Positions 2,446-31,765 of a stretch of DNA of 38,566 nucleotides are shown piece after piece. Source of the DNA: a virus. Made by a program: the position numbers and the translations under genes. Location of the stretch: positions 1-38,566 of IMG/VR virus record IMGVR_UViG_3300011116_000739; one strand, 5' to 3'. Position 1 is the first letter of the stretch. Each line of letters starts with the position of its first letter. A model generated the notes under the pieces. The model searched no databases, had not been told where the DNA came from, and saw only the letters and a program-made list of their open reading frames with translations.

Positions 2446-2949
2446 TTACAAAGATACTGGAATTTTATCAAATCTGAGATAATATTCGGAATCGGATTTA
2501 AGTCGTTCAGTAAGTTTGTTTTTAGCACCTGATTTACATTTAGTACCATTTGTTCTAGATGAATCAAACTTATACATAGTTACACCTTTAATATTACAGT
2601 TTCTTTTATTCCAATGAAATCCTACGTAATATTTATCTGTATAGTATATAAACTTGTTATCGTCTAATTTACCTTCTTTTCTTAATTTCTTAGTTTGACC
2701 CCAATTTACAGGTGCTATTAAACGGTCATTTTTAACCTTAAAAGATCTGTCAAACCTAAGTACCTGAATTTCACCTAGATGGAAAGGTACTTTAAATTTA
2801 CGGTTTCCTCCTAAAAGCAAATAATCTACAATGTAGTTATTTAATTCAAGGACTATCTTTTTGTATAGTTTAAAAGGAATTTGTTTTTCATAATTAGCAT
2901 TATACCAACTATGACTGTCCGTTAATGTTGTTGTGTGAGATTGCGTCAT
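2446..2949 (-). CDS. Small basic protein of the tail module, unknown function
   Basis: 167 residues, strongly basic in the second half (KKLRKEGK, KCKSGAKNKLTERLK), with a predicted beta section around FKVPFHLGEIQVLRF and YYVGFHWNKRNCNIKG. No signal peptide or membrane segment. Its first 41 bases overlap the 3' end of the ring-like gene at 2909-3586, so both lie in one operon. A basic, Lys-rich protein placed between two ring/adaptor candidates could be a minor virion or assembly protein that touches nucleic acid, but that is inference from charge and position only. Confidence 0.6.
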   Translation of the reverse strand: MTQSHTTTLTDSHSWYNANYEKQIPFKLYKKIVLELNNYIVDYLLLGGNRKFKVPFHLGEIQVLRFDRSFKVKNDRLIAPVNWGQTKKLRKEGKLDDNKFIYYTDKYYVGFHWNKRNCNIKGVTMYKFDSSRTNGTKCKSGAKNKLTERLKSDSEYYLRFDKIPVSL

Positions 2950-3586: not shown

Positions 3587-3788
3587 TTCTATCTGTTTTA
3601 AAGAATGTATGATTATGGCATAATTTTACATTATTACTATTATAATGTTTTATGGTACCGTCTTCTTCTAAAGCTACAACAAAAATTAAATTTTCATGTG
3701 GACCGTAATCTATTAGAAATAGAACTTGACCGTCACCATGAGGAGTTGTAACCCAGAGGAAATTGTTTACCTCTTTAATATCAGCCAT
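3573..3788 (-). CDS. Small hypothetical protein (71 aa)
   Basis: The frame is open from 3830, but the ATG at 3788 gives the better start (MADIKEVNNFLWVTTPHGDG), because the extra 14 residues before it overlap the spanin gene deeply and look non-coding. It is a compact beta-rich protein (QVLFLIDYGPHENLIFVVAL, EEDGTIKHYNSNNVKL) with a basic tail (KTDRNDKK). It overlaps the 3' end of the spanin gene by 22 bases and the start of the ring-like gene by 14. No function recognised; an SH3-like small barrel is possible from the strand pattern. Confidence 0.55.
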   Translation of the reverse strand: MADIKEVNNFLWVTTPHGDGQVLFLIDYGPHENLIFVVALEEDGTIKHYNSNNVKLCHNHTFFKTDRNDKK

Positions 3789-4213
3789 AATATGAATACA
3801 AATATAGCAATTAATACCCAAAAATACCATATAGGGTATCCTTGTTTTACCTCAATAGTTTTAGGAATGGTTACCTTTACAGTATCTATTACATTAACCA
3901 GAATAGAATCATGTACATAAATGGGCCTCCTAACAACCGTAGTTTTGACTTTATTAAGGCTGTCAACTGACTGATATACAGTCGTAAAGCTATCACTAAA
4001 TACTTTGTTGAGGGAATCACGATAAAATAGGGTAAGTTGAAAACTACTATCACCAGGTATAGTATCGTATATCTTAATGAGAGTATCCTTTTTAAAAATA
4101 ACTGTTTTATAAGTGCTGTCACCGTATTTGGGGTTTTTCTTTATAGCTTGTTTTAAATGCCACTCTGCAGTGCAAGAGGTTATCAAAAATAATGTAAAAA
4201 TTAAATATCTCAT
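3767..4213 (-). CDS. Unimolecular spanin candidate (u-spanin)
   Basis: 148 residues with two membrane anchors of different types. The N-terminus MRYLIFTLFLITSC is a lipoprotein signal with lipobox LITSC, which would place a lipidated Cys14 in the outer membrane. Residues about 127-147 (IWYFWVLIAIFVFILWLI) form one C-terminal transmembrane helix ending in basic residues. Between them lies a roughly 110-residue periplasmic span rich in beta strands (TVIFKKDTLIKIYDTI, SFQLTLFYRDSL, TVVRRPIYVHDSILVNVIDT). This is exactly the plan of u-spanins such as phage T1 gp11, which span the periplasm and fuse the two membranes in the last step of lysis. The endolysin and holin candidates are immediately upstream in the operon, supporting a lysis cassette. 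Confidence 0.75.
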   Translation of the reverse strand: MRYLIFTLFLITSCTAEWHLKQAIKKNPKYGDSTYKTVIFKKDTLIKIYDTIPGDSSFQLTLFYRDSLNKVFSDSFTTVYQSVDSLNKVKTTVVRRPIYVHDSILVNVIDTVKVTIPKTIEVKQGYPIWYFWVLIAIFVFILWLILKR

Positions 4214-29434: not shown

Positions 29435-29472
29435 GCATTGTTTTTTTAATTATTTATAAGTGGGCTTATAAC

Positions 29473-29497
29473 GGTACAAGATATATAATCTTGTGCC
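29473..29497 (+). other. Intergenic hairpin
   Basis: GGTACAAGAT (29473-29482) pairs with ATCTTGTGCC (29488-29497), 10 bp with one G-U pair and a 5-base loop; TGGG (29461-29464) and CCCA (29506-29509) could close it further. There is no clear U-tract behind it, so it may be a processing or stability hairpin rather than a terminator. Confidence 0.5.
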
Positions 29498-29526
29498 TTA
29501 TATGACCCATTATTAAAATTTTAACT

Positions 29527-29915: not shown

Positions 29916-30258
29916 TTAGCCCTCTGTTGGTGCACCAATAAGGATCGAAGCTCTGAGAAATATAGACTCAGCTAAAACGTAGGTTAGCACAGTAGTGGTC
30001 TGGGGAGATTCTAAAACCACACCCGATAGGGTATAGAAAGTGTTCTTTGAAAGGTATTTATACCTGAAAGGGTATAGAATAGTCAGGTGGTGTAAAAATA
30101 ACACATGGGTGAGCCATATAAAAGAGCAAAAGACCAAGCAACAGGGGTAGTACCTGTCCTGACTACTATGGTTGTAAGGTAACCTTAAACTTTCTAACCT
30201 GTACCCTTGAGAAACTCGTATTAAAGATAAGCAGGTTAGCTTCGATATAAAAGGGTAA
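29916..30258 (+). ncRNA. Large structured RNA, about 340 nt
   Basis: No plus-strand ORF exists, but the segment folds by hand into an elaborate structure. The long-range helix ATCGAAGCT (29944-29952)/AGCTTCGAT (30238-30246), 9 bp, encloses about 285 nt; outside it TTA-CCCT pairs AGGG-TAA (29916-29923/30252-30258, one bulge). Inside are CTGAG/CTCAG (29953-29971), GTGGT/ACCAC (29995-30020), ACCC-GATA-GGGT (30021-30032), AGGTA-TTTA-TACCT (30052-30065), the helix TAGTCAGG/CCTGACTA (30080-30087/30158-30165) enclosing GTGT/ACAC (30090-30104) and ACAGG/CCTGT (30141-30157), GGTT/AACC (30170-30184), and AACCTG/CAGGTT (30196-30201/30232-30237). AGGGTATAGAA occurs twice (30028, 30069). It ends just before a tRNA-like gene. 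In size, complexity, phage location and tRNA neighbour it resembles the GOLLD/ROOL type of giant RNAs, without a recognised sequence match. Confidence 0.65.
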
Positions 30259-30276
30259 GAGAATAAGAAGCAAATT

Positions 30277-30413
30277 GAAAGAGTGGCGGAATAGGGGGTG
30301 CAAAGCAACTCCTTTGGTAGACGCAAGATTAGGTAAACTTGGATGTATCAATCCCTCTATTAATCTTATCTGATGATACTTATGGATTGCTGGTTCAAAT
30401 CCAGCCTCTTTCA
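30277..30413 (+). tRNA. tRNA-Leu-like gene with two hairpin insertions
   Basis: The ends are canonical: acceptor GAAAGAG/CTCTTTC (30277-30283/30406-30412), discriminator A, and T arm GCTGG-TTCAAAT-CCAGC (30389-30405). The D stem GCG/CGC (30286-30288/30322-30324) is that of tRNA-Leu, and its loop reads GAAT then TGGTAGA once 22 bases (30293-30314) are removed, exactly the usual Leu loop. Those 22 bases form their own hairpin AGGGGGT/ACTCCTT. The anticodon stem AGATT/AATCT (30326-30330/30362-30366) holds a 31-base loop instead of 7, with a small GGAT/ATCC hairpin. A long variable region contains TATC/GATA (30367-30378), as in type II tRNAs. No 7-base anticodon loop is visible, so decoding is doubtful; it could be a degenerate gene, a precursor needing excision, or a tRNA mimic. 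Confidence 0.6.
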
Positions 30414-30416
30414 CAT

Positions 30417-30527
30417 ATAATTGTGACGAACAGACGAAAATAAATGTTAATTAATGAGCTAGATAGTTAATTAAATTTAGAAGTAGAAATATTGAAAAGA
30501 CTGATCATCTTTTCTCGTCACAATTAT
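30417..30527 (+). ncRNA. Three-way-junction RNA after the tRNA-like gene
   Basis: A perfect 13-bp stem ATAATTGTGACGA (30417-30429)/TCGTCACAATTAT (30515-30527) encloses two more hairpins, TTAATTAA/TTAATTAA (30447-30454/30467-30474) with a 12-base loop, and GAAAAGA-CTGATCA-TCTTTTC (30494-30514), which stacks directly against the closing stem. The single-stranded joint holds GACGAAAATAAAT. It ends 30 bases before the start of a small gene, so it may act as its leader or as an independent RNA processed away from the tRNA-like part. Confidence 0.6.
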
Positions 30528-30694: not shown

Positions 30695-30771
30695 TGACTA
30701 GCCGTATATAGTCATTTGTCATAAAATAGGGTTAATAAGTGCAAAAAAAGGTAGATACGGCTACCTTTTTT
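30695..30771 (+). ncRNA. Two hairpins with complementary (kissing) loops; second is terminator-like
   Basis: Hairpin 1, TGACTA-GCCGTATA-TAGTCA (30695-30714), shows CCGTAT in its loop (30702-30707). Hairpin 2, AAAAAAGGTAG-ATACGG-CTACCTTTTTT (30744-30771), has exactly ATACGG as its loop (30755-30760). CCGTAT and ATACGG are perfect complements, and the match extends to AGCCGTAT/ATACGGCT if stems open. Hairpin 2 with its T-run also looks like an intrinsic terminator. The pair could thus be a kissing complex, or two alternative foldings that decide termination before the next gene (ATG 30779). It lies right after the 43-codon gene. Confidence 0.6.
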
Positions 30772-31117: not shown

Positions 31118-31765
31118 ATGAAACTAATTAAAATAACTAATGACCACTATGTAGTGGTAGATGATTCAGAGATTGAAAGTGGTGACTTTGTATATGTAGA
31201 TTGCTCTGAATTAGAAGTAAATGATATACGCAAAGTATGTGACTGCCATAACGAGCAATATTTTTTTAAAGGTGGTGGTCAAATACATGTTGATTACTGC
31301 AAGAAAATCACACACTCAACACAACCACTTGAAGTAAAAATAACTGATGAAGGTATTCATTTACCTGATTGGAGTAAGATTAAAGCATTATCTCCAAGAG
31401 TAGTAAAAGAACTGATTGGTGAGGTGGATGCGGAGAAGAAAGCAGAATACCACTACGAAATGATGTATCTGATGGAAAAGAATGACGATATTAAACCTTA
31501 TGTTATTAGAGATTACACAATAGGTTACAACCAAGCCCTTGAAGATAACAAAGAGAAGAAGTACACAGAGGAGGATATGATTAATGCATTTAGAGAAGGT
31601 ACAAATGCAGGTGCTTTACATGAAAGGCTTTCTAATTATGATAATGGTGATTATGAAAAAGCAGAACAATATTCTGAGCAATATGAAGAAAGTTTTATCC
31701 AATCCCTCCAACCTAAAAAAGAATGGGAAATTGAGGAAATTGAAGGAAAATTTAAATTAAAATAA
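31118..31765 (+). CDS. Hypothetical protein of an early-module family (215 aa)
   Basis: 215 residues. The front is strand-rich with metal-like residues (DDSEIESGDFVYVDCSELEV, VCDCHNEQYFFKGGGQIHVD), then PDWSKIKALSPRVVKELIGE, then a section with KKYTEEDMINAFREGTNAGA and ESFIQSLQPKKEWEIEEIEG. The YTEEDM...FREG and F..SLQP pieces recur in smaller form in the genes at 32530 and 33304, so these belong to one modular family spread through Bacteroidota phages (as I recall). Function not known. Confidence 0.6.
   Translation: MKLIKITNDHYVVVDDSEIESGDFVYVDCSELEVNDIRKVCDCHNEQYFFKGGGQIHVDYCKKITHSTQPLEVKITDEGIHLPDWSKIKALSPRVVKELIGEVDAEKKAEYHYEMMYLMEKNDDIKPYVIRDYTIGYNQALEDNKEKKYTEEDMINAFREGTNAGALHERLSNYDNGDYEKAEQYSEQYEESFIQSLQPKKEWEIEEIEGKFKLK

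What the first reader, a model, noticed from the sequence alone, without database searches (positions are those of the whole stretch)
29916..30258. Large ornate RNA beside a tRNA-like gene
A 9-bp long-range helix encloses about 285 nt filled with local hairpins and a second 8-bp long-range helix, plus a direct repeat AGGGTATAGAA. There is no ORF on the plus strand, while both flanks are densely coding. Giant structured RNAs of the GOLLD and ROOL type are known from phages and often lie next to tRNAs, but this one is shorter and I recognise no shared sequence. It may be a new family.
Basis: partly seen in the sequence, partly recalled or inferred. Interest (0 to 1): 0.82.

Follow-up and report, generated by a model that had tools for sequence, protein, structure and literature searches.

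The report
Phage array of anticodon-less tRNA-like RNAs
What looked like one large RNA in this crAss-like phage is a row of separate small RNA modules, including two tRNA look-alikes that have lost the part that reads the genetic code; close kin are packed into many uncultured phages and none was found in any cultured phage record.

Summary
The stretch is real structured RNA, but not one "large ornate RNA". B is a new covariation-supported RNA family (44 distinct places; absent from Rfam 15 and from 50,697 phage records); all five pairs of one helix show compensatory changes. A and TLS2 belong to a large set of viral tRNA-like RNAs: tRNA acceptor, D and T arms, A73 and C74, but no anticodon arm (3 of 175, chance 4; ordinary tRNAs of the same contigs 326 of 400) and a hypervariable core. 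They lie co-oriented in tRNA clusters or just before genes, and B often sits 3-7 nt before a tRNA or tRNA-like 5' end. Best explanation: one transcript cut by the tRNA-processing enzymes at tRNA-like shells, freeing the modules and downstream mRNA ends; whether the cores also act is open. Nearest precedent: phage T4 species 1 RNA, function still unknown.

The parts
29919..30020 (+). Module C: GCCYCTG..hairpin..AACGTAGGTTAGCACAGT..hairpin with CTGGGG loop (GTGGT/ACCAC)
   Evidence: Conserved core and a changed but still paired last stem (GAGC/GCTC) in L172, where C stands alone between two ORFs. Only two distinct sequences; fold no better than shuffles.
30021..30080 (+). Spacer with two copies of AGGGTATAGAA and hairpin TATACC-TGAAA-GGGTATA; not found elsewhere
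30081..30166 (+). Module A (tRNA-like element 1): acceptor AGTCAGG 30081-30087 / CCTGACT 30158-30164, A 30165, C 30166; D-like stem GTGT/ACAC; T-like arm ACAGG-GGTAGTA-CCTGT 30141-30157 with an unusual loop; no anticodon arm
   Evidence: Eight distinct sequences, conserved throughout except one loop of variable length; fold
30196..30271 (+). Module B: P1 AACCTG 30196-30201 / CAGGTT 30232-30237; pseudoknot TACCCTT 30202-30208 / AAGGGTA 30251-30257; P2 GCTTC 30239-30243 / GAAGC 30267-30271
   Evidence: 103.4 bits with the covariance model built here; 99.7% of pair cells standard, 6 pairs changed on both sides, 0 of 500 shuffles reach the covariation score; no Rfam match
30277..30413 (+). tRNA-like element 2 (TLS2): acceptor GAAAGAG 30277-30283 / CTCTTTC 30406-30412, A73 at 30413; Leu-type D-arm motifs GGCGGAAT..GGTAGACGC; T arm GCTGG-TTCAAAT-CCAGC 30389-30405; D-loop insert can pair with the core (ATAGGGGG 30291-30298 / CCCTCTAT 30353-30360); no anticodon arm
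   Evidence: RF00005 30.9 bits; not called by ARAGORN; listed among the elements without an anticodon arm
30417..30527 (+). 13-bp perfect inverted repeat (ATAATTGTGACGA / TCGTCACAATTAT) around an AT-rich stretch, right after TLS2; possible further module
   Evidence: fold z -3.6, 0 of 200 shuffles

Best explanation
A tRNA-punctuated array of small noncoding RNAs. One plus-strand transcript carries module C, tRNA-like element A, module B and tRNA-like element TLS2, followed by phage genes. The tRNA-like elements keep what the tRNA maturation enzymes read (acceptor stem stacked on a T arm, A73, C74, U at -1) but not an anticodon arm, so they cannot decode. Host (or phage) RNase P and the 3' processing enzymes would cut at each shell, releasing the tRNA-like RNAs, the modules between them such as B, and a defined 5' end for the gene after the array. 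Shown here: module boundaries, covariation, absence of anticodon arms, shared 3' signature, co-orientation and spacing. Inferred: transcription as one unit, cleavage, and that release rather than decoding is the function. Whether each core also acts in trans is unresolved.
For: Independence of the modules. B covariation and a sharp gap between true and chance matches. Elements chosen by D-arm and T-arm motifs alone still have 7 of 7 acceptor pairs in 86 of 100 cases, with covarying acceptors such as GAAAGAG/CTCTTTC, ATTAAAG/CTTTAAT, GGTCAAG/CTTGACC, AGTGAGG/CCTCACT, and A73 in 87; similar in loci not chosen by the tRNA-like seed. Anticodon arm in 3 of 175 elements against 4.25 in shuffled cores and 326 of 400 ordinary tRNAs. 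C after the discriminator in 94 of 98, as is usual for the ordinary tRNAs of the same contigs; U at -1 in 78 of 98. 86 of 87 near neighbours on the same strand. B lies within 15 nt before a tRNA or tRNA-like 5' end in 18 of 44 places, at 3-7 nt, and 2-5 nt after one in 13. An ATG opens 10-25 nt after 41 of 175 elements, about 13 expected from the random control. RNase P is reported to cut phage M3 RNA, pre-tmRNA and the C4 antisense RNA precursor (PMC11143913).
Against: No transcript data. The acceptor sequence AGTCAGG itself is conserved, not only its pairing, which pure processing does not require. Module A has a non-standard T loop (GGTAGTA), a weaker RNase P substrate by analogy, and its own pair counts do not beat shuffles. 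B and C also occur where no tRNA-like element was detected nearby. Seed-based samples over-represent CCTGACT acceptors.
Confidence: 0.6

Rival explanations
1. tRNA shells that protect and carry a diversified payload: the hypervariable core acts in trans on host or rival-phage targets (regulation, counter-defence), the tRNA-like ends give release and stability.
For: Cores are long (median element 103 nt) and mostly unique (97 of 144 singletons), slightly more structured than shuffles (mean z -0.68 +/- 0.08); ends are conserved while cores differ.
Against: No antisense excess to the same locus (longest match 9.4 against 9.3 in shuffles); neutral drift of an unneeded core explains the variability as well.
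Confidence: 0.2
2. Decoys or aminoacylatable mimics: the elements engage a synthetase, EF-Tu or tRNA-directed nucleases. A Leu-type D arm with A73 might allow leucylation, since bacterial LeuRS does not read the anticodon (general knowledge).
For: Leu-type D-arm motifs and A73 in 87 of 100 elements found by that D-arm motif; the acceptor sequence itself is conserved.
Against: Other elements carry other D-arm types, and that sample was selected by the Leu-type motif; no variable arm in the tRNA-Leu position was shown; charging cannot be tested here.
Confidence: 0.1
3. Decaying tRNA genes (pseudogenes).
For: ARAGORN calls few of them; anticodon arms are lost.
Against: Acceptor pairing is kept by compensatory changes, A73 and C74 are kept, elements are longer than tRNAs, and the same type recurs in very many contigs.
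Confidence: 0.05
4. One large ornate RNA (GOLLD/ROOL-like).
For: Minimum-energy fold joins both ends by a 9-bp helix.
Against: Modules occur separately; the helix competes with a covarying hairpin; no Rfam match.
Confidence: 0.03

Closest known systems
Phage T4 species 1 RNA (rnaC), with species 2 RNA (rnaD)
   Same: Stable phage RNA in a tRNA cluster; rnaC (139 nt) has a T arm CCGGG-TTCGAAT-CCCGG beside an imperfect acceptor-like pairing of its ends and a long core in place of an anticodon arm; function still given as unknown (PMC9697503).
   Different: Homology not shown; its acceptor-like stem has two U-U mismatches; a single pair of RNAs in T4 against a large, multi-copy set here.
Canonical phage tRNA genes
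   Same: Acceptor, D and T arms, A73, encoded C74, same clusters and strand.
   Different: No anticodon arm; inserts in the D loop and core; 54-182 nt long.
Theta ribozymes (HDV-like, tRNA-associated, Kienbeck et al. 2024, PMC10879173)
   Same: Small RNAs packed against phage tRNAs in Bacteroidota phages.
   Different: Module B is a kissing arrangement of two hairpins (order a b a' c b' c'), not an HDV-like nested double pseudoknot, and often lies just before a tRNA 5' end.
GOLLD and ROOL RNAs (PMC12286853)
   Same: Phage noncoding RNA near tRNAs, structured, function unknown.
   Different: Longer single RNAs; no covariance-model match; here separate modules.
mascRNA/menRNA (PMC9777231)
   Same: tRNA-like RNA generated enzymatically from a longer noncoding transcript.
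   Different: Mammalian; unrelated.

Membership tests
GOLLD / ROOL / other Rfam 15 large RNAs | Match to the family covariance model | tested here: not met
   No family at gathering score in the window; local search to E 10 lists only tRNA, two snoRNA chance hits, IMES-1 (17.3 bits, cut-off 81) and serC
GOLLD / ROOL / other Rfam 15 large RNAs | A single molecule closed by conserved long-range helices | tested here: not met
   C and B occur apart; the long-range helix conflicts with covarying P2 of B
tRNA (RF00005) | Covariance-model match | tested here: met
   TLS2 30.9 bits, cut-off 29; only 17.3 bits in the genome-wide search
tRNA (RF00005) | Anticodon arm with 7-nt loop | tested here: not met
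   TLS2 is listed without one; 3 of 175 relatives, chance level. So it is tRNA-like, not a tRNA
Theta / HDV-like ribozymes | HDV-like nested double pseudoknot with catalytic C, cleavage site at a tRNA 3' end | tested here: inconclusive
   No HDV-family model of Rfam matched, and B has another topology; the published theta descriptor was not run
tmRNA (RF00023) | Covariance-model match, tag reading frame | tested here: not met
   No match in the window, though a relative carries a tmRNA
T4 species 1 RNA | Sequence homology | not tested
   Only the anatomy was compared; not claimed as a member
T4 species 1 RNA | Stable RNA seen in infected cells | not testable with these tools
   Uncultured phage; no RNA data

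The most novel reading that the evidence does not exclude
A very large, hitherto undescribed class of viral tRNA-like RNAs without an anticodon arm, whose conserved tRNA shell carries a rapidly diversifying core that acts in trans in the phage-host conflict; T4 species 1 RNA would be a distant analogue.
Probability: 0.2. Interest if true: 0.92.

Novelty: new variant of a known kind. Interest (0 to 1): 0.7.

Why it matters
tRNA finders discard these elements as undetermined or miss them, so a large class of phage RNAs has gone unnamed. If they are processing shells, many phages of Bacteroidota cut their transcripts with borrowed tRNA enzymes; if the cores act, they are a new kind of diversified viral RNA. 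Either way the old question of what T4 species 1 RNA does gains many comparative examples. Module B is a new pseudoknotted RNA family with its own covariation.

Tried and rejected
One large RNA: rejected by module independence and the competing hairpin. Known Rfam family: none. Protein coding on the minus strand: no PHROG match. Relatives among cultured phages: no module B in 50,697 records, and no match over 80% of an artificial query that joins the two tRNA-like ends; the listed hits are mostly parts of ordinary tRNAs; distant search with the window itself gave only chance-level hits. Host tRNA origin: the 22-nt 3' end occurs in only 6 contigs of about 85,000 species genomes, all MAGs, several of Bacteroidota. 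Antisense role of cores against the same locus: no signal. Closer homologues of TLS2 by its T arm and acceptor: none. A relative of the neighbouring protein (L272, 82%) ends before the RNA region. Published descriptions: none found in nine searches of a partial library; most subscription journals and bioRxiv are not covered.

Full report
What was checked. The window is a 38.6-kb uncultured virus record. Major capsid, portal and terminase match PHROG head and packaging families, and the capsid protein is 27-29% identical to those of crAss002 and other crAss-like phages. The 9-bp helix lies at the edge of chance (3.5% of shuffles) and the overall fold is moderately stable (z -2.1).

It is not one RNA. 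Relatives were sought with the terminase and a nearby protein, and their whole records with the RNA region. Matches came in separate pieces: 30195-30277 in one set of contigs, 30078-30168 in another, 29972-30005 in a third. Exact-pattern scans of the viral collection then gave 58 stretches with module B, 9 with module A and 3 with module C. C in L172 stands alone between two ORFs; A in L156 stands alone before an ORF; B stands in many settings.

Module B. Twenty sequences (19 distinct) of B without loop inserts align with 92% mean identity. A structure of two hairpins whose loops kiss (P1, P2 and a 7-bp pseudoknot) has 99.7% standard pairs, six pairs changed on both sides and a covariation score no shuffle reaches; all five pairs of P2 vary and stay paired. 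A covariance model finds B in the window at 103 bits, with a clear gap to chance hits. Some copies carry inserts of up to about 100 nt in the P1 loop. No Rfam family matches, nor any of 50,697 phage records.

tRNA-like elements. Among 190 distinct seed hits, 174 have GTCAGG 50-260 nt upstream (34 of 508 in displaced controls, some of which probably fall on neighbouring elements), and 175 elements were extracted. Median length is 103 nt against 75 for ordinary tRNAs. A 5-bp, 7-nt-loop anticodon arm with U33 and R37 was found in 3 of 175, as often as in shuffled cores (4.25), against 326 of 400 ordinary tRNAs of the same contigs. When elements are chosen by D-arm and T-arm motifs only, 86 of 100 still have seven acceptor pairs, with several covarying acceptors including TLS2 of this window, and A73 in 87. 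Loci not selected by the seed give a similar picture. 94 of 98 have C after the discriminator, also the usual base in ordinary tRNAs of these contigs, and 78 of 98 have U at -1. Cores are mostly unique and slightly more structured than shuffles, with no antisense signal. Module A is a conserved subtype with a non-standard T loop; its pairs hardly vary, so covariation neither supports nor refutes them.

Arrangement. Elements with a near neighbour are on its strand in 86 of 87 cases. B lies 3-7 nt before a tRNA or tRNA-like 5' end in 18 of 44 distinct places by automatic detection; the printed sequences show further ones that the detector missed, such as L140, L251 and L253. In the window B ends at 30271 and TLS2 starts at 30277. 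An ATG of an ORF opens 10-25 nt after 41 of 175 elements, about three times the random rate.

Mechanism. The features kept are those of tRNA maturation, and the feature lost is the one needed for decoding. The simplest reading is that the shells are processing signals that cut one transcript into modules and mRNA. RNase P acting on non-tRNA phage RNAs is established (review PMC11143913). Cleavage, stability and any trans function remain inferred. Conservation of the AGTCAGG sequence itself is not explained by processing alone; recombination between copies or recognition of the acceptor are possible.

Relation to known things. T4 species 1 RNA ends in a T arm beside an imperfect acceptor-like pairing and has a long core instead of an anticodon arm; its function is still unknown (PMC9697503). 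The present elements work like it in anatomy, but homology was not tested. They are not GOLLD/ROOL, not tmRNA and not canonical tRNAs; the theta-ribozyme descriptor itself was not run. Literature coverage was partial.

Noticed in passing
L070 706-1238 (record G020, relative of the window by the protein at 31118-31765): A phage-encoded tmRNA (RF00023, 76.7 bits), 0.4 kb after a tRNA-Leu and upstream of two tRNA-like elements.
   Followed up: partly
L136, L090, L140, L253, L089, L114, L155, L069, L067, L192, L158, L181 and others, beside tRNA-like elements: Several further recurrent spacer modules, e.g. AACACGTAAACCTAAGTACC..GGGCTAAGTT, GTGTTG..CCCTTGAGAAAGGA..CAACACAGAGGACTTCTCATCCTC, AATGAGTAAGAG..GGTGGGGAAA, and a small hairpin GCTTGGAAAGACAAGC just before tRNA-like 5' ends.
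   Followed up: partly
L067 about 2750-2836 (minus strand) and L206 minus strand about 3730-3920 of the reverse complement: A homologous D-loop insert with changed but still paired stems (ACAACCTCG/CGAGGT and ACAACCCCG/CGGGGT) and a T-arm-like hairpin GTGG-TTAGAAT-CCAC inside a tRNA-like element, in a viral contig and in a Saprospiraceae MAG contig.
   Followed up: no
window 30417-30527: 13-bp perfect inverted repeat around an AT-rich stretch (z -3.6); its 3' end and what follows resemble three places in L177.
   Followed up: no
window 30744-30771: Terminator-like hairpin with T run on the plus strand, a possible end of the array transcript.
   Followed up: no
window 29463-29512: Intergenic inverted repeat (GGGCTTATAACGGTACAAGAT..ATCTTGTGCCTTATATGACCC) upstream of the array.
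   Followed up: no
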